From Parafrankia sp. EUN1f (GTDB lineage: Bacteria; Actinomycetota; Actinomycetes; Frankiales; Frankiaceae): a stretch of 64,000 bases of DNA. The notes beneath the pieces were generated by a model, which did not search any database, had not been told where the DNA came from, and was given only the letters and a program-made list of their open reading frames with translations. The stretch is taken from NCBI RefSeq assembly GCF_000177675.1, contig NZ_ADGX01000034.1, positions 1-64,000 of the forward strand. Direction: 5' to 3'. Positions 3,894 through 26,011 of this stretch are shown piece after piece. A program made the position numbers and the translations under genes. Position 1 is the first letter of the stretch, and every line of letters starts with the position of its first letter.

Positions 3894-5066
3894 CTACTGG
3901 CCGAGTAGTCGGCGGCCCGCCGCCGACAGCGCGGTGTCCTCCTGCGGCGGATGAACCCGCACGCACAGGACGTCCCGCAGGAGCCGCTCGAACGGGAGAT
4001 GCCTGGTCAGGCCCGGGTTCCCCAGCACAGCGACCGCGGTCTCGACCGCGGCGATCGCCGACCGCGCGATCTGGACCTTCACCAACGGCAGCTGCGGCAG
4101 GTGGGCTGTCTCGCCGGCCTCGGCCCGCAGCTGCACCCCGAACAGCAGCGTCTCGGCCTGCGCGATCTGTGCGTCGATCTCGCCGGCCGCCGTCTGGATC
4201 CGCTCGGTCGTCGCGATCGGACGCCCGAGCGCGGCCGGCACCCGCTCCCGCGCGAACCGCACGAACGCACTGCGGGCGGCCCGCGCCACCCCGACGTAGA
4301 TCGCCGAATAGGCGAAGTTCCCCAGCGTGGTCGTCGTCGACGGATCCCGGTAGACACCGTCGGGCCCGCGCGGGATCTCGACGAACGCGTCGGCCGGCAG
4401 CCGGACGTCGACGTACTCCACATCGTGGGTGTTCGACGCCCGCAGGCCCAGATGGTCCCAGCTGTCACTCCAGCTGATGCCGGGCAGCTCCGCCGGGACG
4501 ATCACCTGACCGACCCGAGGCCGCCGCGGGTCACCGCCGGGTTCGTCCGCCACCGCCCACACCACGTGGTACGCCAGCGCCGCCCCACCGGTGGCGTACG
4601 TCTTGCGGCCGTTGAGCACCCAGCCACCGTCGGGGTGGCGGCTCGCCGTGGTCCTCGGCAGACCGCCGCGGGACGGTGACCCCAGCTCCGGCTCCGAACG
4701 GACGGCATTGGCCAACGCCGGGCCCTGGACGCTGCGCCACAGCAGGTCGGCGTAGGAGGCCACCGGCCAGCTGTCGGCCGCCGCCTGCCGCTGATGGACG
4801 ATGAGGTTGTTGGCTGCGAGCAGCCCGACGGAGGCGTCCCCCTCCCCGAGCGCGACCAGGATGCGCACGGTCTCCAGGGGCCCGAGGCCCGGCCCGCCGT
4901 AGCGTGCGGCAACGGTCCCCGTCAGCAGTCCGGCCTGATGCGCCACCTCCAACCCGCGTACCGGAATCGCCCCCGTGCGGTCGTACTCCGCAGCGCAACC
5001 GGCGATCTGGGCCGTCACAGCCGCCAACGCCTCCGGCGAGAGATCGGGCACGACCAGGTCAGGCAC
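3894..5066 (-). CDS. acyl-CoA-dehydrogenase-fold flavoprotein, last gene of the STM4011-4015 operon
   Basis: 390 residues with the acyl-CoA dehydrogenase fold: an N-terminal helical domain (GLLTGTVAARYGGPGLG), a central beta domain (GGWVLNGRKTYATGGA; SWDHLGLRASNTHDVEYVDVRLP) and a C-terminal helical domain. True dehydrogenases carry a catalytic Glu in an EGT motif after an ERxxRD-like segment. Here the segment reads FERLLRDVLCVRVHPPQED, so that Glu is absent. The HPP-x-D ending is typical of the DszC/SfnB-like flavin monooxygenase branch. An oxygenase or non-dehydrogenase role is therefore more likely than fatty-acid oxidation. GTG 5066 begins two bases after the stop of the STM4011-like gene, which points to translational coupling and membership of the operon. 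Its link to the five-gene system is inferred from position only. Confidence 0.85.
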   Translation of the reverse strand: MPDLVVPDLSPEALAAVTAQIAGCAAEYDRTGAIPVRGLEVAHQAGLLTGTVAARYGGPGLGPLETVRILVALGEGDASVGLLAANNLIVHQRQAAADSWPVASYADLLWRSVQGPALANAVRSEPELGSPSRGGLPRTTASRHPDGGWVLNGRKTYATGGAALAYHVVWAVADEPGGDPRRPRVGQVIVPAELPGISWSDSWDHLGLRASNTHDVEYVDVRLPADAFVEIPRGPDGVYRDPSTTTTLGNFAYSAIYVGVARAARSAFVRFARERVPAALGRPIATTERIQTAAGEIDAQIAQAETLLFGVQLRAEAGETAHLPQLPLVKVQIARSAIAAVETAVAVLGNPGLTRHLPFERLLRDVLCVRVHPPQEDTALSAAGRRLLGQ

Positions 5067-5068
5067 CT

Positions 5069-5929
5069 CTACATCATGGTGCCCTGAGGCCAGAGGGTGG
5101 GGATGCGTTCCAGGACTCCGCCGGCGAAGGTGCGGTACAGATCGAGCGTCTCCAGGTGGACGTAACCGATGTGGCAGTCGCAGACGTCCAGAGGGCACGT
5201 CCGGGATCGCAGCGCTGGGCGGAACGAGCCGTCGTACAGGTTCCCCAGCACGGTCGGGACGAAGTGGCAGCGCCGGACCGTGCCGGCGCCGTCCACGGAC
5301 ACGACGGTCTCGCCGGTGCGGCAGGGCAGGCCGCGGCTGGGATGCGCGGTGCGGCTGTAGGCGAACAGCGGGTCGATCCGCGTCCAGTGGGCGGCCTCGG
5401 TGTCGGTGTAGGTGTGGCCGCTGGCCGCGTTCACCCACAGGTACACATGCCGGGGCAGATCCGCGCGCAGGCTGCGCGCGGCGTCCAGGTGCTCGGGCTG
5501 CCCCACGATGCCAGCACTGAAACGCACCCCGCGCGCGGCCAGGTCGAGGCACCGGCCGACGAAACGTTCGTATGGCACCTGGCTCGGGTGGTAGGTGCCC
5601 CACAGCGCGAGCCGGGACAGATCAGCTTCGCTCGTCCAGTCGACGCGGTGGCTGAGGTTGGTCTGGATCGCGACGCGCTCGACATGCGGGAGGTGGCTGA
5701 GCTCCACCAGCGCCCGCCGGTACCAGGAGCGGGTGAGGCCCTCACCCCACGGCGTGAACAGCACCGAGACGCCGTGTTTCTGCTCCCGGACCCAGCGGGT
5801 GAAACGCTCCAGCGCCGCCCGGTCCGCCCGCAGCTGCGCCGCGGTGTCGCGGCGCTTCGCGAACGGGCAGTAGGAGCAGTCGTAGTCGCAGCTGGCCAGC
5901 GGCCCGCGGTAGAGGATCGTCAGATTCAT
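5069..5929 (-). CDS. STM4011 family radical SAM protein
   Basis: 286 residues. The radical SAM signature CxxxCxxC is present as C14-D-Y-D-C18-S-Y-C21, ligating the [4Fe-4S] cluster that cleaves S-adenosylmethionine. The C-terminal third has further cysteines (GLPC, RRC and the cluster TCPLDVCDC), consistent with an auxiliary SPASM-like iron-sulfur site. Other family-like parts are LFTPWGEG, IQTNLS and LWGTYHPSQVP. It matches what is annotated as the STM4011 family, after the Salmonella locus. The ATG overlaps the STM4012-like stop by one base (TGATG). The substrate is unknown. Together with the neighbouring radical SAM, ATP-grasp and hydrolase genes, it suggests modification of a peptide, protein or small molecule. 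Confidence 0.93.
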   Translation of the reverse strand: MNLTILYRGPLASCDYDCSYCPFAKRRDTAAQLRADRAALERFTRWVREQKHGVSVLFTPWGEGLTRSWYRRALVELSHLPHVERVAIQTNLSHRVDWTSEADLSRLALWGTYHPSQVPYERFVGRCLDLAARGVRFSAGIVGQPEHLDAARSLRADLPRHVYLWVNAASGHTYTDTEAAHWTRIDPLFAYSRTAHPSRGLPCRTGETVVSVDGAGTVRRCHFVPTVLGNLYDGSFRPALRSRTCPLDVCDCHIGYVHLETLDLYRTFAGGVLERIPTLWPQGTMM

Positions 5930-7245
5930 CAGCGTGGGGTGTAGCTGGCCATCAGGGTCTGGACCCGGGGTGAGAAGAGCGCCGGGCCCAGGGCGTCGGA
6001 GTGGGCGAGGCCTTCGGGGGTCAGCCGGAGGGTGGTCGGGGTCTGCTCCAACCAGCCGCGGTCGGCGAAGGCGGTGAGGTCGACGTCCGCCGTGCCGTCG
6101 GTGTGGAAACGCTCCCGGTAGGCGATGCGGTCCAGGCCCTCGGCCTGCAGCAACGACTGGATCAGATGGCGCCGGCGGCGCTCGTCGCCGGTGAGGGTGA
6201 AACCGACCCGGGCAGTGGTGAAGTCCGCCTCGTGCAGGTAGTCGTCCAGGATCGCGCGCACCTGCCGGGTGCCCACCGCGTATTCGAACGAGTAGTGCAG
6301 ATCCGAGGTGTAGGAGCGGGCTCCGCAGCCCAGGCCGACCATACCGTCGGTCTGGCAGCAGTACTCCGGCCCCGACGCACGGCCCGGCGCGGGCTGCTGA
6401 CCGGGTGGGCGGCGGAACATCCGCATGGAGACCTGCTCGTAGCCGTGGGCCAGCAGGTGGTCGCGGCCGAGGCCGTACAGCCGGGTGCGCTGGTCGTCCC
6501 AGTCGGTCTCGCGCCGGGCCAGGCCGGTCAGGGGACGGATGTACAGGGGGTACAGGTAGAGCTCCTCCGGGCGCCAGGCCAGTGCCGCGTCCAGGGAATG
6601 CAGCCAGGTGGTCGCGGTCTGGCCGTCGATTCCGTAGATGAGATCGATGTTCAGCGTGGGGAAACCGGCTCGGCGGATGCGTTCCAGGGCTGCCTCGACC
6701 TCGGCCCGCCGCTGGGGTCTCCCGGCCGCGCGGGCCTCGACGTCCAGGAAGCTCTGCACGCCGATCGAGATGCGGGTGGTGCCGCGTTCACGCAGCACGG
6801 TGAGACGGTCGGCGGTCGCGGTGGCCGGCGAGGTCTCCACCCCGAACGGGATGCCGCCCAGCGGTGCGAGGCGGGCGCTGATGTCGCAGAGCCGTTCCAG
6901 CTCGGGGGCGGTCAGGTAGGTGGGTGTGCCGCCGCCGAAGGCCACCGTGGCGAACGCGGCGTCGCCCAGTGCGCCGGTGACCGCCACGGCCTGGCGTTCG
7001 AGCGCGTCCAGGTAGGCGCCTGTGAACTCCTCGGATGCTCCCGTGCGGGTGAACAGGTTGCAGAAGCCGCAGCGCATCTCGCACAGCGGGACGTGCAGGT
7101 AGAGGAACAGCGCGGACCGGTCCTGCGCGGCCCACACGTCCCGCAGCGCGGGGCGCGGCGACAGCGGCCGGTAGGCCGTCTTGTGCGGGTACGCGTAGAC
7201 GTACTGCTGGTATGGGCCGGTGTACTGCTGGTGTGGGCCTGTCAT
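5929..7245 (-). CDS. STM4012 family radical SAM protein (HemN/HemW-like)
   Basis: 438 residues from ATG 7245, which overlaps the preceding stop as ATGA. The radical SAM motif is C55-E-M-R-C59-G-F-C62 after LYLHVPL, the HemN/HemW-style context. FGGGTPTYLT, FGVETSPATA, ISIGVQSF and LNIDLIYGIDGQT follow as in coproporphyrinogen oxidase-like enzymes, then a C-terminal winged-helix-like HemN domain. The Tyr/Gln-rich N-terminal tail (HQQYTGPYQQYVYAYP) is unusual. The family is annotated separately from true HemN/HemW and occurs with STM4011, 4013, 4014 and 4015. The reaction is unknown. A haem role should not be assumed. Confidence 0.93.
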   Translation of the reverse strand: MTGPHQQYTGPYQQYVYAYPHKTAYRPLSPRPALRDVWAAQDRSALFLYLHVPLCEMRCGFCNLFTRTGASEEFTGAYLDALERQAVAVTGALGDAAFATVAFGGGTPTYLTAPELERLCDISARLAPLGGIPFGVETSPATATADRLTVLRERGTTRISIGVQSFLDVEARAAGRPQRRAEVEAALERIRRAGFPTLNIDLIYGIDGQTATTWLHSLDAALAWRPEELYLYPLYIRPLTGLARRETDWDDQRTRLYGLGRDHLLAHGYEQVSMRMFRRPPGQQPAPGRASGPEYCCQTDGMVGLGCGARSYTSDLHYSFEYAVGTRQVRAILDDYLHEADFTTARVGFTLTGDERRRRHLIQSLLQAEGLDRIAYRERFHTDGTADVDLTAFADRGWLEQTPTTLRLTPEGLAHSDALGPALFSPRVQTLMASYTPR

Positions 7246-8060
7246 GCCAGCACGAACTCCCCGTATGGGACGGTCCAGACGACCTCGTGGCCGAGGCGGT
7301 GGCCGTTGTAGCCGTCCTCGCCGTACGCGGTCCCGTGGTCCGAGCAGACGATCACGAAGCATGGGCGGCGCATCAGCGCGAACAGGCGGCCGAGCTGCCG
7401 GTCGACGTGGCGCAGCGCCGCGGCGTGGGAGTCGCGCGAGTCACCGTGGTTGCGGGTGGCATCGTGGTCGCGGGTGGCACCTGCCAGGTAGAACCAGTTT
7501 GGCTGGTGCAGCGCGGCCACGTTGAGCAGAAGGAACAGCCGCCGGTCGGGCGGGAGGCGCCGCATCACCTCGCCGACCCGGTCGATCTGGTGGGTGAGGG
7601 AGTCGGGGTCGGTCACGCCGAACCGGGGCTCCCAGTGGCTTTCGGTGAACAGGCCCGGCAGAACCGAGCCGAGCGGGCTGAGCTTGTTGAAGAAGCCCAC
7701 ACCGCCTACACAGACCGTGTGATAGCCGATCTTCGCCAGGCCAGCCGGGAGGTCGGGGGCGTCGAACGCCCAGGTGCCGGGTACGGTGGTCTCGCTGCCG
7801 GGGAACTGCCCCGCGAACAGGCGCGGGTGTGGGCCGGGCAGCGCCGGGGTCGGCAGGAAACCGGCGAGCATGGCGGCGTGTGCCGCGTAGGTGAAGCTGC
7901 CCGGAGTGTGGCGGCGTTCCCAGCGGCCGCCGGGCAGCAGGCTGCGGAGGGTGGGTGTCTGCCCGGAGGCGGCGAGTTCGACCGCGACGTCGTAGCGCAG
8001 GGTGTCGAGCGTGATCAGCAGTAGATCATGGGTGCCGATGATCTCGTTCATGTCACGCAT
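7242..8060 (-). CDS. STM4013/SEN3800 family sulfatase-fold hydrolase
   Basis: 272 residues of the alkaline-phosphatase/sulfatase superfamily. Metal-site residues are recognisable at D19 (LLLITLDTLRYD), the nucleophile region TPGSFTYAAHAAMLAGFLP (residues 52-70, Thr or Ser rather than the Cys of formylglycine sulfatases), S-D-H-G at 240-243 and H254/H258. No signal peptide is present, so it acts in the cytoplasm, unlike most sulfatases. It matches the STM4013/SEN3800 hydrolase family. ATG 8060 lies 21 bases after the STM4014-like stop; an ATG at 8051 is an alternative. Its stop overlaps the start of the STM4012-like gene, showing tight coupling. A phospho- or sulfo-ester or phosphonate target is possible but not shown. 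Confidence 0.9.
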   Translation of the reverse strand: MRDMNEIIGTHDLLLITLDTLRYDVAVELAASGQTPTLRSLLPGGRWERRHTPGSFTYAAHAAMLAGFLPTPALPGPHPRLFAGQFPGSETTVPGTWAFDAPDLPAGLAKIGYHTVCVGGVGFFNKLSPLGSVLPGLFTESHWEPRFGVTDPDSLTHQIDRVGEVMRRLPPDRRLFLLLNVAALHQPNWFYLAGATRDHDATRNHGDSRDSHAAALRHVDRQLGRLFALMRRPCFVIVCSDHGTAYGEDGYNGHRLGHEVVWTVPYGEFVLA

Positions 8061-8081
8061 ACCGGCGTCGCCCCCGGCTGC

Positions 8082-9167
8082 TCATGCCGCCACCGCGTGT
8101 GCCGCCAGGGCTGCGTGTACCTGGGCGACGTAGGTATCCAGGCCTTCGGCCCAGGTGCCCGGCAGCCCGGTGATGCCGGGCAGCAGATCACCGAACGCGT
8201 TGACCTCACCGACCGCGACCCGCCGCCAGCCGATCTGCACAAGCAGGTCGACACCGACCATGAGGCTGCCGGGAAAGCACGCGGCGGCCCGCGCGCACAC
8301 GTCGAGCGCACGCTCCCAGCCGGTGGAGCCGAGGGCGTCGCGCACCGCGCCGACCGAGCCCCGCGCCCCGCCGAGGTGCAGGTTGGTCATCGGGGAGCGG
8401 CTCGTCCGCACGACCACATGAGTCGGCTCGCCGGCGATCACCACCACCCGCAGGTCGAGGACACGCCCGCCGAGCGCGGCCTTGGGCAGCCACCGCTCCA
8501 CATGCAGCCCGTCCGGCGCCAGCTCGTCGATCAGCTGGGCCACCTCGGGCTCGGTCTCGTAGGCCCGGACCCGCAGCGCGTTGACGAGGCCGGTGCCGGT
8601 GCGCGCGGCGGAGGTGACGGCTCTGACCCGCCCGCCGCGCGCGGCCCGCAGCGCCACGACGCCGGATGCGGACGAGCCGTGCGCCGGTTTGACGAACACC
8701 TGGTCCATGCCCGCCTGCGCCATCCGCGCCCGCAGGTCGGCATAGTCGTGGACGGGTGGCAGTGCCTCCGGGACGGGCACACCCGCCGACCGCAGCCGGG
8801 CGTGGCAGCGCCTCTTGTCGCACATCACGGCGATCTCGTCGACGTCGCCGAGCAGCCGGGCGCCCGAAGCCGTGGCCGCGGCGGCGGCGGCGACGCGCCC
8901 CAGCCCCGCGGTGAAGGACGCGTACCACCGCGCTCCCCCGCCCACCCGGGTCGGATCACCGGGCCCGCGCAGCAGCCTGTCCACCTCGGGGTCGCCTCCC
9001 GGCGAGTCGATCCGCAGCAGCGAGCCGGGCACGATCGGCAGCTCGCCACCGTGCAGCACCTGCGCCCAGCCGACGACCCGGGGCGCGGCCAGGCCCGCCG
9101 AGCGGCACGCGGCCGTGAACAGTTCGGTGCGCCGGTCGCCCGGTGCCCCCACCACGGTGAACATCAT
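8082..9167 (-). CDS. STM4014 family protein (ATP-grasp-like)
   Basis: 361 residues. The central and C-terminal parts resemble an ATP-grasp ligase of the RimK/glutathione-synthetase type: DKRRCHARLRSAGVPVPE (117-134), an ATP-binding Lys at 160 followed by the flexible loop HGSSASG (163-169), an acidic segment near 205-225 and the metal-binding region GVDLLV...EVNAFGDLLPG with E321 and N323. ATP-grasp enzymes join a carboxylate to an amine or thiol through an acyl phosphate. The start is the first of two consecutive ATGs in GAATGATG, where the upstream stop and this start overlap. The family name follows the Salmonella locus. The substrates are unknown; peptide or amino-acid ligation is the plain inference. 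Confidence 0.9.
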   Translation of the reverse strand: MMFTVVGAPGDRRTELFTAACRSAGLAAPRVVGWAQVLHGGELPIVPGSLLRIDSPGGDPEVDRLLRGPGDPTRVGGGARWYASFTAGLGRVAAAAAATASGARLLGDVDEIAVMCDKRRCHARLRSAGVPVPEALPPVHDYADLRARMAQAGMDQVFVKPAHGSSASGVVALRAARGGRVRAVTSAARTGTGLVNALRVRAYETEPEVAQLIDELAPDGLHVERWLPKAALGGRVLDLRVVVIAGEPTHVVVRTSRSPMTNLHLGGARGSVGAVRDALGSTGWERALDVCARAAACFPGSLMVGVDLLVQIGWRRVAVGEVNAFGDLLPGITGLPGTWAEGLDTYVAQVHAALAAHAVAA

Positions 9168-10129
9168 TCGGAGACCGCGGTGTAGAACCAGTCGTCCTCC
9201 GCCTCCTCCTGCTGACCGAGGTCGATCTCGACGCCGGGCAGCGCGGCGCCGACGCGGTTCATCGCGGCGTCGGTCAGGAAGTGATGGTGCAGGTCGAGCC
9301 GCTCGAGGTGGGTGAGCGGCTGGCCGGACAGCAGCGACTCGGCTCCCCGGTCGGTGAGGGTGCCCAGGGCCAGGCTGAGCGACGTCAGCCGCGCGACGAT
9401 CGGCGCGCCCGCGACAGCCGCGGCGACCTCATCCGCGATCTGGGCGTTCTCCAGGCCCAGATGCCGCAGGGCGGGCAGCCGCTCGCCGCCCAGGATCCCG
9501 GCGAGGTCGGCCACGGTCGCGTCGCCGCCGTAGTTGTCGGTACCCAGCCACAGATCGAGGTGCTCCAGGGCGGGCAGGTCACTCCCGCCGACGGCCCGCA
9601 CCACCGAGGCGGGCAGCCCGCCCGTCTCGAAGCGCAGCGTCCTCAGCGTGCTGCTGCGGACCGGGCGCAGCGCCAACCCGTCGCTCCCGCGGACCCCCAG
9701 GTACTCCAGCGCGGGAAAGGCGCCGAACAGGCGGGTGACATCGGACTGCTCGATCCAGGAGATCTCCGCCTCCTCCAGCACGATGTCGCCCAGGAACAGC
9801 GCGCGCAGCGCGGGCAGCCGGTCGGCCGCACCCACCAGCAGGTCCACCGGATCGACGGTGTTCTTCGTGTCGTAGGACGCGCCCCAGTAGCCGATGACCA
9901 GATGGGTCACCTCCGCGGGCGGGACCTCCGCCAGGAACTTCTGGAAGACGTCGCCGAAGCCGGGGCCCTCGAACCAGGTTCTGACCCGCCAGGCGACGTC
10001 ACCGGGCGAAGCCCGCGTGCCCGAGTCGCCTGACCCGAAGTACCGATCCGACGACTCGCCTTCGTGCTCGTGCCGAAAATCGACCACCGGCTTGCCGGCG
10101 AGCTCGGTGAGGTGCTCGTTGATGGTCAT
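9164..10129 (-). CDS. STM4015 family leucine-rich-repeat protein, first gene of the operon
   Basis: 321 residues from ATG 10129, chosen because GGGGGCC lies just upstream and the frame before it is not coding-like. The N-terminal third contains VTHLVIGYWGASYD and DLLVGAADRLPALRALFLGDI. Irregular leucine-rich repeats follow, of the form LPALEHLDLW, LPALRHLGLENAQI, LTSLSLALGTLTD and LERLDLHHHFLTDAA. The acidic C-terminus (QQEEAEDDWFYTAVSE) stands out. This matches the STM4015 family. LRR proteins bind other proteins or peptides, so it may be a scaffold, a recognition factor or the modified substrate of the radical SAM/ATP-grasp enzymes; none of this is proven. It is the promoter-proximal gene of a six-gene minus-strand unit. 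Confidence 0.9.
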   Translation of the reverse strand: MTINEHLTELAGKPVVDFRHEHEGESSDRYFGSGDSGTRASPGDVAWRVRTWFEGPGFGDVFQKFLAEVPPAEVTHLVIGYWGASYDTKNTVDPVDLLVGAADRLPALRALFLGDIVLEEAEISWIEQSDVTRLFGAFPALEYLGVRGSDGLALRPVRSSTLRTLRFETGGLPASVVRAVGGSDLPALEHLDLWLGTDNYGGDATVADLAGILGGERLPALRHLGLENAQIADEVAAAVAGAPIVARLTSLSLALGTLTDRGAESLLSGQPLTHLERLDLHHHFLTDAAMNRVGAALPGVEIDLGQQEEAEDDWFYTAVSE

Positions 10130-10555: not shown

Positions 10556-11464
10556 TCAGGGAATGGCATATTCATACTGCGTAGCTCGAAGATCTTCCGG
10601 CGCGGGCTCCCAGTCTTTGTAGACGTGCACCCTTCCACCGGAAGCCTTGTACGGAGATTCACTTCTATCAACTACAATGTCACTGACAACAATGAGCCAG
10701 GTGGGCTGAAAATCCCTGGCATGCTGAACCTCGTTACGGGTGAGAAAAACGGTCGTGGCAGCACCGGTGCTGCCCTTCACCTCGACATGGAGGATAGTGC
10801 CGTCGCGTTCACAGCTCAGATCATAGGGCTTGCCGACGATCTCGATTTTGGTCCAGCCTTCATCGATCAAGAGCTGCCGAGCAGTTTCGACGGCATGCGC
10901 CTCGACAGCAGCCGTCAGTCGGGAATCCTGACTGCGCGCCGCTCCGCGCCGACGGGTCTTATTCGGAATACTCTCAGGCTCAATACCTCGCGTAGCAGCG
11001 AACGCAACCTGTGACCCAGGGAGCCCCCTCAGAGCAAACAAAGGGGTTGGATCGTAGTCGATGGTTTTCCCGAGGCTTCCATCAACGCCGGACCGACGCA
11101 TCGCGTCGCTTGCACGAGCGCCTAGCGGGCCATCATTGCTCGCAGCCACCTCAGAGAGATCAAACAGAGGTTCAACTCCGAAGCGGACAGGATAGATCAC
11201 CGTGCTCGATTCGACCTCGTCGTCCCAGAGCGGCGCCCGCCCAGTGTAGAAGTCGCCGGTGAACCGGCAGATGTAGAGATAGAGGGTGCCAGCCAGCCAC
11301 GCTTCCGCCTTGGCGCGAGGCCCCAGCGAAGTGCGCTTTGCACCAAAGATCACAAACTGAGGTCGAACATCAGCATCGCGATACTTATCCTTGAAACCCC
11401 AGGTCTGAGCCTCGAGGCCTCGCGCCAAGTTGCCCAGGGCCCTCTCACCCAAGTAGATGAACAT
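10556..11464 (-). CDS. DUF3883 domain protein with EVE/PUA-like N-terminus, possible modified-DNA restriction protein
   Basis: 302 residues. The C-terminal 110 residues (about 190-300) match the DUF3883/NO-VEIN C-terminal domain: TARQLLIDEGW, YDLSCERDGTILHVEVKGSTG and FLTRNEVQHARDF. The D-x-E-x-K-like segment (YDL...HVEVKG) has the look of a PD-(D/E)xK nuclease core. The N-terminal part (WGFKDKYRD, QFVIFGAKR, YICRFTGDFY, TVIYPVRF) may be an EVE/PUA-like module that reads modified bases, but that is a weaker call. Proteins with DUF3883 occur in McrBC-like and other defence loci. Here it stands alone, with no ATPase or methylase next to it. Base composition is clearly less GC-rich than its neighbours, which suggests transfer. 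A TTG at 11491 is an alternative start. Confidence 0.75.
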   Translation of the reverse strand: MFIYLGERALGNLARGLEAQTWGFKDKYRDADVRPQFVIFGAKRTSLGPRAKAEAWLAGTLYLYICRFTGDFYTGRAPLWDDEVESSTVIYPVRFGVEPLFDLSEVAASNDGPLGARASDAMRRSGVDGSLGKTIDYDPTPLFALRGLPGSQVAFAATRGIEPESIPNKTRRRGAARSQDSRLTAAVEAHAVETARQLLIDEGWTKIEIVGKPYDLSCERDGTILHVEVKGSTGAATTVFLTRNEVQHARDFQPTWLIVVSDIVVDRSESPYKASGGRVHVYKDWEPAPEDLRATQYEYAIP

Positions 11465-12053
11465 CGTGGCAGGCAACGTTGATCCGCCCAATCTCGCGAC
11501 TGATGTAGACGAATCATATCAGCAGACGATCTGCAGCTAGGGTTGCCACCCAGAACATCGACCACCACCCGCACCCCCACCCCATGACCGCCCGACAGGC
11601 GGATTGGGAGCCCATCCACACGGCGATCGCAGGTTGTGCCACCACAACCAATGCACATTGACCCAGACGATCTGTGACCTTAGGTAACGATTCGTTACAG
11701 AAAGTAAAAATGAACGGCCCGACCGGCCACGACCTTGAAGCGGAATCGACATCGACAGCACGCCACGCGACGTCCCGCATCTGTGGAAGCCGATCGCCAG
11801 CCCCTAGGGGCCCGACTTCGAACCGCCTTTCACGCTGCGGCTGGACAACGCTCGCCCCCAGGACGTCGCGGGCCCGGAGGACGCTGCTGGCACTGCATCT
11901 CGGCACTGACCGAATTGGGCGGTCACCCAAAGCGCTGGATCAGGCACCGGTGGTGCTCGACGGAGTTTGCGTAAACCGCTATTGTTCCGGTTCCGGGAGG
12001 GGTCCCGACGCGCCGAGTCGTCTCGGCACCGCGATCACGGAGGTTCCTCCCTA
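11465..12053. other. intergenic region of 589 bp, partly AT-richer
   Basis: No credible gene. It separates the divergently transcribed DUF3883 and expansin-like genes and should hold both promoters. A 15-bp palindrome (gtaacgattcgttac, 11684-11698) is a possible operator. Composition changes from AT-richer near 11500-11720 to normal high GC by about 11800, which may mark the edge of an inserted segment. Confidence 0.5.
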
Positions 12054-23739: not shown

Positions 23740-24134
23740 GGCCGGACCTCGCCGGCTCCTTCGAGCGCGGTCTGGACGCCGACCAGAAGCAGGCGGAGAT
23801 CAACCCGGAGGAGGTCCACCCCGGCGAGCGCGACGACCACGTCGCCGCTGACGACCGCGCCGGTGTCGACAAGCCTGTCCAACAGGTCCGCGAGCGGCTG
23901 CGCCGAGGTCCGCGCGGTGCGCCCCGGGCGGCGCGAGGGCGCCGAGGCGGTTCCGCGCGCTGAGCGGCGGGCAGGTCCCTGGTAGTGCTGCGGCAGCCCT
24001 TCCAGCCGCGGGAGCCCTTCCAGCCCCGGCTCACCCGTTCCTGGCGGCCCTCCCACCCGGCCCCGTGGCTGTCGCCGGGCACCGGCGTCACCGCCGCGGT
24101 ACCGCGGTGTCGGGACGAATCGCTGATCAGTCAC
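23736..24134 (-). CDS. gvpS: gas vesicle minor structural protein, GvpS/GvpJ type
   Basis: 132 residues from GTG 24134, which overlaps the gvpL stop by eight bases; an in-frame ATG at 24167 is an alternative. The C-terminal 50 residues form a GvpA-fold core (PLADLLDRLVDTGAVVSGDVVVALAGVDLLRVDLRLLLVG). The first 75 residues are low-complexity and basic, with a short repeat (EGLPRLEGLPQ). GvpJ/M/S proteins are GvpA paralogues that act at vesicle nucleation or tips. The symbol gvpS is given by analogy with actinobacterial clusters. Confidence 0.85.
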   Translation of the reverse strand: MTDQRFVPTPRYRGGDAGARRQPRGRVGGPPGTGEPGLEGLPRLEGLPQHYQGPARRSARGTASAPSRRPGRTARTSAQPLADLLDRLVDTGAVVSGDVVVALAGVDLLRVDLRLLLVGVQTALEGAGEVRP

Positions 24135-25509
24135 GCTCTTCACCTGGTTCGTGCAGTGAACCGTCATCCGGCCACCCGCCGTGCGGGACGGCAAACCGGT
24201 CGGATCGCCTCGCTTCCGCCGCGCCGGAAGCCTCCGCCGAACCCGGTCCGGCTCCCGGCCCGGGTCCGGCTCCAGCACCGGACATCCCGTCCCCGCCGAG
24301 GGTCAGATGGACGAAGGAGTAAGGCGGCCACGGCCCTGTCACCACGGCGGCGTAACCGACCTCCGCCAGCGGCGGGGCCAGCCGCTCGGCCGCGTCGAGG
24401 AACTCCTCCTCCTCGTCGCGGTTGACGAGGTAGGCGCAGTCGAGGATCCGGTCCGGCCGGCTCGGGCGGCGGGCGACGTCACGCGCGTGCGCGAGCAGTT
24501 CCCGGCGCGTCCGGTCCACGAGGCGGGATATCTCCTCGCGCCGTCGTTCCTCCTCGCACAGCTCGTCTCGGCGGGCCGTCAGGTACGCGGTACCCGCGCC
24601 CGGGCTGGTGGTGGTGTCGCCATCCCCGGTCGATCCCGCTCTCGCCAGTTCCGCCGCGTCGGCATAGCCGGTCGGGGTCGGGACCGACTCGTCCGCGGCG
24701 AGGCCGGCCGGGTCAGGTGCGGTCGAGCGATCGGCGTCGATCCGAAAGCCCCACTCGCGCGCGCCGCGCAGCGCGTCGAGCGCGCCGGTCAGCTCGGCCT
24801 CGGGATCGTCGAGGACGCCCATGGCCTCACGCTCGCCGGCGAGAACGGTCCCGAACCGGAGGGGCAGCACCGCGGCGCGGTCCTGCAGCTCCCGCAGAAC
24901 CTGGTCATGGCCGCGCGCCAAGGCGGCGAGACGTCCCGTCTCGGAAAGGTCCTCTTCGATGTCGCTCAGCAGCGCCGGGTCGATGGCCGAGACCACGAGC
25001 GAGACCCCGCCACGCGTGACGGCACGGGCATCGGTGTCCGCGGCGAGGCCCGGCAGGTCGTCGACATCGGTACCGGCAGGGACGATTCCATAGGCGTACA
25101 GCGCCCGATTCCGCTCGCTCCCCACTGGCCGGCCGTCGCGACCGCTGGCCCACCTGCGACCGCTGGCCCACCTGGGTTCGTCGCGGCCTCCAGGCTGAGG
25201 TGTGGCGAGGCGGTCGCCGGTGGCTCGGTGGTCGCCGCGGGACTCCGGCCAGGCAGGGCAGGACACCGATGCGCGGGACGCCCCGGCCGAGGGCGGGCCC
25301 GCGGGAGACGAGAGCGCACCTTCTGCAGCGGAGGGCGGGCCTGCGGCCGTTCGCTCGCAGGCGACTCTGGTGATCTCCTGGGCCAGGAGTTGCGCGAGTT
25401 GCGCACGCGCGACCTCGCGGGCCTCAGCCACGGCGTCGGCCAGCACGGCGGGCGCGAGCCGGGCCGCCAGTTCGTCGAAAGAGCCGAGATCAGCGTCCGC
25501 CGCGTCCAC
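24127..25509 (-). CDS. gvpL: GvpL/GvpF family protein with extra N-terminal domain
   Basis: 460 residues, much longer than a normal GvpL (about 250-300). Residues 1-60 are a helical segment (DELAARLAPAVLADAVAEAREVARAQLAQLLAQEITRVACERTA), 60-130 a Pro/Gly/Arg linker, and from about 132 the GvpF/L domain begins (NRALYAYGIVPAG; LPLRFGTVLAGEREAM; EWGFRIDAD; ILDCAYLVNRDEEEEFLDA; VTGPWPPYSFVHL). The GTG at 25509 has GGAAGGAGG at ideal distance, while no good start exists just before the GvpL domain, so the fusion looks genuine. It overlaps the gvpJ end by 20 bases. The N-terminal part may replace a lost small gvp gene; that is inference. Confidence 0.85.
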   Translation of the reverse strand: MDAADADLGSFDELAARLAPAVLADAVAEAREVARAQLAQLLAQEITRVACERTAAGPPSAAEGALSSPAGPPSAGASRASVSCPAWPESRGDHRATGDRLATPQPGGRDEPRWASGRRWASGRDGRPVGSERNRALYAYGIVPAGTDVDDLPGLAADTDARAVTRGGVSLVVSAIDPALLSDIEEDLSETGRLAALARGHDQVLRELQDRAAVLPLRFGTVLAGEREAMGVLDDPEAELTGALDALRGAREWGFRIDADRSTAPDPAGLAADESVPTPTGYADAAELARAGSTGDGDTTTSPGAGTAYLTARRDELCEEERRREEISRLVDRTRRELLAHARDVARRPSRPDRILDCAYLVNRDEEEEFLDAAERLAPPLAEVGYAAVVTGPWPPYSFVHLTLGGDGMSGAGAGPGPGAGPGSAEASGAAEARRSDRFAVPHGGWPDDGSLHEPGEERD

Positions 25510-26011
25510 GGTCAGACCTCCTTCCCCCGTCCTCCTCCCAGAACGGCCGCGACTCGTCCCGGCGGACCGCCGCCGCCCGGCGCCCGGCGAGCGGCCGCAT
25601 CGAGGACTCGACCGCCTCCGGTTCCCGGTGGGGACGAGCCTGGCCGGCCGAGCCTTCCAACCGGGCGAGCCTGGAGCGCAGTTCATCGTTCTCCGCGTGC
25701 AGCGCCCGTACGGTCTCCTCGCGCAGCTCTCGCTCCTGCTCCTGCTGCAACGACCGTGCCTCACGGCTGTAGAACGGGTCGGTGGTCCACCAGTCCAGGC
25801 CCATCTCGCGGGCGGTGTCGGCGGATGCGATGAAAAGGCGCAGCTTGAGCGTGAGGAGCTCCACGTCGAGAACACTGATGACCACGTCACCGACGATGAC
25901 GACTCCCTTGTCGAGCACCCTCTCCAGCACGTCAGCAAGAGAGTCCGAGTGCCGCCCGCTCAGCGTGCGCAGCCGCGCGGAGCCTGCGAGAGGAGCGCGA
26001 TCTATCGTCAT
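25490..26011 (-). CDS. gvpJ: gas vesicle protein GvpJ
   Basis: 173 residues. The N-terminal half is a GvpA-fold core (SLADVLERVLDKGVVIVGDVVISVLDVELLTLKLRLFIASADTA, seen in DKGVVIVGDVVISVLDVELL). A coiled coil follows (QQEQERELREETVRALHAENDELRSRLARLE), then a charged tail. GvpJ is a minor shell or nucleation component. It lies 87 bases downstream of gvpO and overlaps the extended gvpL. Confidence 0.9.
   Translation of the reverse strand: MTIDRAPLAGSARLRTLSGRHSDSLADVLERVLDKGVVIVGDVVISVLDVELLTLKLRLFIASADTAREMGLDWWTTDPFYSREARSLQQEQERELREETVRALHAENDELRSRLARLEGSAGQARPHREPEAVESSMRPLAGRRAAAVRRDESRPFWEEDGGRRSDRGRGGR

What the first reader, a model, noticed from the sequence alone, without database searches (positions are those of the whole stretch)
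5069..10129. Complete STM4015-4014-4013-4012-4011 operon: an uncharacterised two-radical-SAM system in an actinobacterium
Five genes occur in strict order with one- to four-base overlaps: LRR protein, ATP-grasp-like protein, cytoplasmic sulfatase-fold hydrolase, HemN-like radical SAM enzyme, and a second radical SAM enzyme with extra Cys. The families are named after Salmonella loci and, to my knowledge, have no assigned reaction. The set resembles a modification or biosynthesis machine. ATP-grasp could activate or ligate, the two radical SAM enzymes could do C-H chemistry, and the hydrolase could release or recycle a phospho/sulfo group. The LRR protein could select or be the target. Keeping all five across such distant phyla implies an interdependent pathway.
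Basis: partly seen in the sequence, partly recalled or inferred. Interest (0 to 1): 0.85.

Follow-up and report, generated by a model that had tools for sequence, protein, structure and literature searches.

The report
LRR protein with invariant C-terminal glutamate
Five neighbouring genes that bacteria from several phyla keep together probably form a small workshop in which one enzyme attaches something to the very last amino acid, always a glutamate, of a repeat protein and two radical enzymes then alter it; the gene set is named in databases but its job is unknown, and that invariant last glutamate gives the first concrete handle on it.

Summary
The five genes are real: each exceeds its NCBIfam cut-off, in the order STM4015-4014-4013-4012-4011 on the minus strand (three junctions overlap by 1-4 bases; 4014/4013 has a 21-30 base gap). 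The same order occurs in Actinomycetota, Deinococcota, Alpha- and Gammaproteobacteria and Bacillota. In 121 Streptomycetaceae genomes STM4014, STM4012 and STM4011 occur in exactly the same 59; STM4015 in those plus three. No paper found assigns a function.

New here: all 205 distinct STM4015 proteins examined end in glutamate, in a tail [YF][VIT]AV[SAG]E-COOH after an acidic linker of variable length. Tandem paralogues (up to six) share it; in five whole genomes no other protein was found to end this way. The predicted STM4014 structure matches ArgX-LysW, LysX, RimK-RpsF and PsnB best, ATP-grasp ligases that act on protein or peptide tails. STM4011 looks like a SPASM-type radical SAM enzyme; STM4013 is a Thr-nucleophile phosphohydrolase, not an FGly sulfatase.

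Most likely: STM4015 is the substrate. STM4014 ligates a group onto its C-terminal Glu and the radical enzymes elaborate it, as a retained modification or a LysW-like carrier intermediate. All reactions are inferred. The families were already named; the mechanism would be a new variant of known tail-directed chemistry.

The parts
9164..10129 (-). STM4015-family LRR protein (321 aa); proposed substrate. C-terminal tail ...EEAEDDWFYTAVSE-COOH with invariant terminal Glu321
   Evidence: NF038076 365.9 bits, cut-off 275; 205/205 relatives end in Glu; nearest solved structure 2RA8
8082..9167 (-). STM4014-family ATP-grasp ligase (361 aa); proposed to activate the C-terminal Glu of STM4015 and ligate an amine
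   Evidence: NF038074 443.3 bits; AF2 model pLDDT 94.2; best PDB matches ArgX/LysW, LysX, RimK/RpsF, PsnB
7242..8051 (-). STM4013/SEN3800-family compact alkaline-phosphatase-superfamily hydrolase; Thr54 nucleophile, no FGly motif at that site (an upstream in-frame ATG at 8060 is possible)
   Evidence: NF038075 409.1 bits; PDB profile best hits NPP phosphodiesterases; Thr at the site in 96/96
5929..7245 (-). STM4012-family HemN-like radical SAM enzyme (438 aa), CxxxCxxCNLF
   Evidence: NF006067 624.9 bits, cut-off 380; far below HemN/HemW/HutW cut-offs
5069..5929 (-). STM4011-family radical SAM enzyme (286 aa) with CxxxCxxC (C14, C18, C21) and SPASM/twitch-like C-terminal cysteines C203, C221, C245, C250, C252
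   Evidence: NF038073 409.7 bits; Cys invariant in 28 sequences; SkfB auxiliary-domain match E 6e-4
3894..5066 (-). acyl-CoA dehydrogenase-like gene starting 2 bases after the STM4011 stop; probably the same transcription unit here but not a conserved part of the cassette
   Evidence: Pfam Acyl-CoA_dh N/M/1; matches in relatives fall only on other frames of STM4011

Best explanation
STM4015 is the substrate of the other four proteins. Its LRR body is a folded recognition domain, and its acidic tail ending [YF]-x-A-V-[SAG]-Glu-COOH is the working site. STM4014, an ATP-grasp ligase of the LysX/RimK/PsnB type, phosphorylates a carboxylate of the C-terminal Glu with ATP and joins an amine (an amino acid or similar) to it. 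STM4011 (SPASM-type radical SAM) and STM4012 (HemN-like radical SAM, probably a C-methylation or related C-C/C-H step) then change the attached group or the neighbouring tail residues. STM4013, a Thr-nucleophile phosphohydrolase, removes or transfers a phosphoryl or phosphodiester group on the way. The product is either kept on the LRR protein as a shared C-terminal group on several paralogues (slightly preferred, because paralogues are multiple and no releasing peptidase is conserved in the set) or released, making STM4015 a LysW-like carrier. Shown: gene content, co-inheritance, the invariant tail and its uniqueness, the predicted fold of STM4014. Inferred: every reaction, their order, the identity of the added group and its fate.
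For: 205/205 distinct STM4015 proteins end in Glu, 202/205 with Tyr/Phe at -6, while the distance from the last LRR motif varies from 42 to 65 residues; the last residues of the other four proteins vary. The Glu is also there in E. coli, Salmonella, Paenibacillus, Methylobacterium and Deinococcus and in B. fragilis 2RA8. Tandem copies, up to six per operon, and distant genomic copies keep it; only sub-cut-off outliers lack it. In five whole genomes the tail plus stop codon was found to end no other protein. STM4014 model (pLDDT 94.2): top PDB matches ArgX with LysW (Z 24.3, rmsd 2.8, 273 aligned), LysX 24.0, RimK 24.0, RimK with RpsF 23.5; PsnB with its peptide is high in the Foldseek list. 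LysX/ArgX conjugate the C-terminal Glu of LysW/ArgW (PMC10433800); RimK extends the C-terminus of RpsF (PMC10092738). Strict co-occurrence in 59/121 genomes. ATP-grasp plus SPASM enzymes are frequent partners in peptide-modification loci (PMC8939145).
Against: No biochemical evidence. Fold similarity does not give the substrate: D-Ala-D-Ala ligases, glutathione synthetase and PPIP5K kinases score only 2-4 Z lower. The profile match to LysX is weak (E 6e-6 with the diverse alignment, 0.24 with the actinobacterial one). AF2 gives the tail fair confidence (mean pLDDT 97 for 301-310, 85 for 311-320, 52 for 321), so part of it may pack on the LRR body. Three genomes keep a tailed STM4015 without 4014, 4012 and 4011. 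One locus, L076, has STM4015 but no STM4014 beside it.
Confidence: 0.5

Rival explanations
1. Amino-group-carrier pathway: STM4015 is a LysW-like carrier; STM4014 loads an amino-acid-like building block on the Glu, the radical SAM enzymes and STM4013 transform it, and a small molecule is released by an enzyme encoded elsewhere.
For: C-terminal Glu on an acidic tail and a LysX/ArgX-like ligase; amino-group-carrier pathways to other amino-acid products and the use of charge contacts by their enzymes are summarised in PMC9303977. STM4013-like hydrolases elsewhere sit beside radical SAM, Nudix, kinase and nucleotidyltransferase genes, which fits a phosphorylated small-molecule intermediate.
Against: No release hydrolase is conserved in the cassette; known carriers are small proteins, whereas STM4015 is a large LRR protein in up to six tandem copies; no Zn ribbon, no EDWGE motif, and GSWGR occurs in only 1 of 111 STM4014 sequences.
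Confidence: 0.2
2. The tail is a binding motif, not a reaction site: STM4015 uses its C-terminal Glu peptide to dock onto one or more of the enzymes as scaffold or substrate selector, and the modified substrate is another molecule.
For: Invariant free C-terminal peptides can be docking motifs; the LRR fold binds proteins; AF2 packs part of the tail; a long body segment (GDIxSEExEISWI) is conserved across phyla as well.
Against: A docking tail does not explain why the conserved ligase resembles enzymes that act on exactly such tails, nor the many paralogues beside one set of enzymes.
Confidence: 0.2
3. RiPP-like pathway: the LRR domain is an unusual leader, the C-terminal 6-20 residues are a core peptide that is modified by STM4014/4011/4012, cut off and exported.
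For: ATP-grasp plus SPASM radical SAM is a common RiPP pairing (PMC8939145); PsnB with its precursor is among the structural matches; tandem precursor genes.
Against: No peptidase or exporter recurs in the cassette; the core would be nearly invariant over phyla, unlike most RiPPs; no Cys in the window's STM4015.
Confidence: 0.08

Closest known systems
LysX/ArgX with carrier LysW/ArgW (amino-group carrier protein system)
   Same: ATP-grasp ligase of the same fold (top PDB match to the STM4014 model, Z 24.3) next to a protein with an acidic tail and invariant C-terminal Glu
   Different: The protein here is a ~300-residue LRR protein without Zn ribbon and without EDWGE; partners are two radical SAM enzymes and a phosphohydrolase, not LysZ/Y/J/K
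RimK and ribosomal protein RpsF (S6)
   Same: RimK-type fold; modification at the C-terminal end of a folded protein
   Different: RimK adds poly-glutamate and has no radical SAM partners; RpsF is ribosomal
Graspetide / SPASM RiPP loci (PsnB, SkfB-type maturases)
   Same: ATP-grasp and SPASM-type radical SAM enzymes encoded together with a gene-encoded polypeptide
   Different: The polypeptide is a large LRR protein, no leader/core cleavage signature, no exporter or peptidase conserved
Pearlin pathways (TglA/TglB, TmoA/TmoB)
   Same: Building on the C-terminus of a carrier polypeptide, with radical SAM chemistry afterwards
   Different: Loading there is by a tRNA-dependent peptide ligase, not ATP-grasp; a protease releases the product
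2RA8 (B. fragilis Q64V53) LRR protein
   Same: Profile E 9e-80 and Foldseek E 6e-19 to STM4015; its native C-terminus also ends in Glu
   Different: Has an extra N-terminal stretch; no function found in the papers searched; its gene neighbourhood could not be inspected here

Membership tests
STM4011-4015 cassette (NCBIfam NF038073-76, NF006067) | each protein above the curated cut-off, conserved gene order | tested here: met
   order compared
LysW-type amino-group carrier system | C-terminal Glu on an acidic tail of the carrier | tested here: met
   205/205 end in Glu, mean acidic fraction of linker 0.37
LysW-type amino-group carrier system | EDWGE motif and Zn-binding Cys in the carrier | tested here: not met
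   Tail is [YF]xAV[SAG]E; the window's STM4015 has no Cys
LysW-type amino-group carrier system | GSWGR motif in the ligase that recognises EDWGE (PMC10433800) | tested here: not met
   present in 1 of 111 STM4014 sequences
LysX/RimK-type ATP-grasp ligase | fold and conserved ATP-grasp residues | tested here: met
   invariant K118, K160, E224, R254, D307, N323; the roles of single residues are inference
LysX/RimK-type ATP-grasp ligase | ligation to the C-terminal Glu of a protein | not testable with these tools
   needs mass spectrometry
Sulfatase (FGly-dependent) | C/S-x-P/A-x-R at the nucleophile site | tested here: not met
   site is [SN]FT[YW]..H with Thr in 96/96; profile hits NPP phosphodiesterases first
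SPASM/twitch radical SAM enzyme (STM4011) | CxxxCxxC plus C-terminal auxiliary-cluster cysteines | tested here: inconclusive
   cysteines invariant, SkfB match E 6e-4 with the diverse profile but none with the narrower one; cluster not shown
HemN/HemW/HutW (for STM4012) | score above family cut-off | tested here: not met
   112 vs 325, 134 vs 205, 132 vs 400 bits
RiPP/graspetide | cleavable leader, exporter or peptidase nearby | tested here: not met
   not among annotated conserved neighbours; a remote gene is not excluded
Pearlin | tRNA-dependent peptide ligase (PEARL) | tested here: not met
   the ligase of the cassette is ATP-grasp
Anti-phage defence system | match to PADLOC models | tested here: not met
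   only one weak hit of the HemN-like protein, E 5e-5

The most novel reading that the evidence does not exclude
A dedicated, widespread post-translational system that builds a new prosthetic group in place on the C-terminal glutamate of leucine-rich-repeat proteins (ATP-grasp loading followed by two radical SAM steps), so that one enzyme set equips several LRR paralogues with the same warhead or cofactor.
Probability: 0.25. Interest if true: 0.88.

Novelty: new variant of a known kind. Interest (0 to 1): 0.62.

Why it matters
The cassette is present in about half of the sampled Streptomycetaceae, in Deinococcus, Paenibacillus, Methylobacterium and Salmonella, and (by its STM4012 gene) in 154 of 5426 complete E. 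coli genomes, yet no paper found gives it a function. Recognising that the LRR protein always ends in the same Glu tail, and that the ATP-grasp partner has the fold of ligases acting on such tails, turns an orphan five-gene set into one simple experiment: weigh STM4015 with and without STM4014. If right, it adds a large folded carrier or a permanent C-terminal group to a chemistry known from LysW and RpsF.

Tried and rejected
STM4011 as an anaerobic sulfatase maturase for STM4013 (anSME-like hits): rejected, because STM4013 has an invariant Thr and no FGly motif at the nucleophile site. Heme-related function of STM4012: rejected on scores. Phage defence: no PADLOC support. Phage-borne cassette: the 'phage' records found are Salmonella-like contigs or other HemN relatives. 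The acyl-CoA dehydrogenase as sixth component: not conserved. DUF6745 plus the ~100-aa TGHSH protein as obligatory parts: adjacent in 69-70 of 80 actinobacterial loci, but the small protein is absent from the window's own genome, the pair is not beside the operon in Salmonella, E. coli and Paenibacillus, and the small protein occurs without the cassette in 3 of 121 genomes. Conservation of body versus tail in tandem paralogues (61% vs 73%) was too weak to use. Promoter and terminator scans and Rfam gave nothing useful.
Full report
Observation. The five ORFs lie on the minus strand at 9164-10129 (STM4015), 8082-9167 (STM4014), 7242-8051 or -8060 (STM4013), 5929-7245 (STM4012) and 5069-5929 (STM4011), each far above its NCBIfam cut-off. 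A sixth gene, acyl-CoA dehydrogenase-like (3894-5066), starts 2 bases after STM4011 but has no counterpart in relatives. The window's genome is 9.35 Mb in 396 contigs; the nearest STM4012 is from Parafrankia colletiae, 84% identical.

Spread and co-inheritance. Annotated plasmid and chromosome records show the same five genes in the same order in Streptomyces, Deinococcus, Methylobacterium, Paenibacillus, Salmonella and E. coli O83:H1; 154 of 5426 complete E. coli genomes carry STM4012. Of 80 actinobacterial loci fetched with STM4012, 77 hold all five; the exceptions are one cut contig (L050), L076 without STM4014 and L077 without STM4013. In 121 Streptomycetaceae genomes STM4014, STM4011 and STM4012 occur in the same 59, and STM4015 in these plus G301, G317 and G351. 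If presence were independent, identical sets of 59 in 121 would have a chance of about 10^-35; shared ancestry makes that figure only indicative. STM4013 also has a second subfamily outside the cassette (69 genomes in all), beside a MoaA-like radical SAM enzyme, Nudix, dTMP-kinase-like, HAD or nucleotidyltransferase genes. STM4012-family enzymes also pair with a class I methyltransferase on Rhizobium and Cupriavidus plasmids (the Rhizobium tropici one scores 444.8 against a cut-off of 380). So two of the five families have other uses, two showed none here, and STM4015 is rarely alone.

The tail. The first alignment showed an invariant residue at the extreme C-terminus of STM4015. Extended to 152 and then 205 distinct sequences, every one ends in Glu, with Val at -3 in 189, Ala at -4 in 162 and Tyr/Phe at -6 in 202. 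The linker before it is acidic (37% Asp/Glu) and its length varies, so conservation is anchored to the C-terminus and not to the LRR. E. coli ends ...YMNPMFTE and the native end of B. fragilis 2RA8 is ...YSYPMITE. The four enzymes of the cassette have no such fixed terminal residue, although the neighbouring ~100-aa protein always ends in Asp. Tandem STM4015 copies, up to six, and copies far from the operon keep the tail; two sub-cut-off relatives without it are the exceptions (L164, L169). A DNA pattern for the tail plus stop, searched in five whole genomes (about 45 Mb), found as protein ends only the STM4015 genes; the one other match with a stop codon is in a 24-codon open frame. This pattern does not cover every tail variant (for example ...FTSVSE).

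The enzymes. STM4014: confident model (pLDDT 94.2). Foldseek ranks ArgX-LysW, LysX, the LysX/ArgX of Thermococcus with LysW-gamma-AAA, RimK-RpsF and PsnB with precursor first; VIA-align gives Z 24.3, 24.0, 24.0 and 23.5 for ArgX, LysX, RimK and RimK-RpsF, with glutathione synthetase at 22.3 and other ATP-grasp enzymes at 20-22, so the ranking is suggestive and not exclusive. The sequence profile agrees weakly (LysX E 6e-6; 0.24 with the narrower profile). In LysW/ArgW the amino acid is attached to the C-terminal Glu, and the Glu-to-Ala mutant is an arginine auxotroph (PMC10433800). STM4011: CxxxCxxC plus five invariant C-terminal cysteines in a CxxG...C...C-x4-C-x-C arrangement, best read as a SPASM/twitch auxiliary-cluster domain; weak SkfB match, not repeated with the narrower profile. 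STM4012: HemN-like but well below HemN, HemW and HutW cut-offs. STM4013: invariant Asp16, Thr54, Asp238, His239 and His251, Thr in 96/96, nearest profiles nucleotide pyrophosphatase/phosphodiesterases; by analogy with that superfamily a phospho-hydrolase or -transferase. STM4015: confident LRR model (pLDDT 94.7) with the end of the tail less certain (85 for 311-320, 52 for 321), closest solved fold 2RA8.

Mechanism. The simplest reading that uses all parts is that STM4015 is the substrate: recognised by its LRR body, loaded at its C-terminal Glu by STM4014, and altered by the two radical SAM enzymes with STM4013 handling a phosphorylated group. Whether the product stays is open. Multiple LRR paralogues and the lack of a conserved peptidase or exporter favour a retained group; the LysX similarity favours a carrier. 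A tail used only for docking is the main non-covalent rival. None of the reactions has been shown.

Relation to what is known. The families are curated in NCBIfam ('hypoth_equivalog', 'subfamily' and 'equivalog' models), but of the papers in the library only two name any of the five Salmonella loci; the one read lists STM4013 as a RpoN binding site, and neither has them in title or abstract. STM4014/STM4015 is not a LysX/LysW pair by membership: Zn ribbon, EDWGE and GSWGR are missing. It may work like one.

Noticed in passing
L032 3127-4749, L034 10079-11376, L036 3652-4977 and 69-70 of the 80 loci L042-L121: A DUF6745 protein and a ~100-aa protein with GEVTGHxH...HEEH...RQREY, always ending in Asp, form a two-gene module usually divergent from the cassette; the Deinococcus DUF6745 has LRR-like repeats. 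The pair also occurs without the cassette (L171, L172).
   Followed up: partly
L180-L183, L186, L177: A second STM4013 subfamily sits beside a MoaA-like radical SAM enzyme (CNxxCxFCHNEG, ending AAFTEG[TIR]L), a ~165-aa protein with weak phosphomannomutase similarity, Nudix, dTMP-kinase-like and HAD genes; in L177 beside a sugar nucleotidyltransferase. Looks like an unrecognised radical SAM pathway on phosphorylated substrates.
   Followed up: partly
L174 7992-10309, L175 7917-10252, L176 7989-10306: STM4012-family enzyme plus class I methyltransferase, on Rhizobium plasmids next to pseudoazurin and fixNOQP/ccoG and on a Cupriavidus plasmid; the pairing recalls two-component HemN-like cyclopropanases (mentioned in PMC9062424).
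   Followed up: no
L038 9685-10419, L173 9075-9773: In Salmonella and E. coli a Cof-type HAD-IIB phosphatase gene overlaps the end of STM4011 and typA follows on the other strand.
   Followed up: no
L167 (G306), L168 (G393), L045: STM4011 is split by frameshifts in some genomes that otherwise keep the operon: sequencing errors or recent decay.
   Followed up: no
window 10556-11491 (-): Protein with a NOV_C (NO VEIN C-terminal) domain upstream of the cassette.
   Followed up: no
window 24127-25938 (-): Gas vesicle protein GvpL/GvpF homologue.
   Followed up: no
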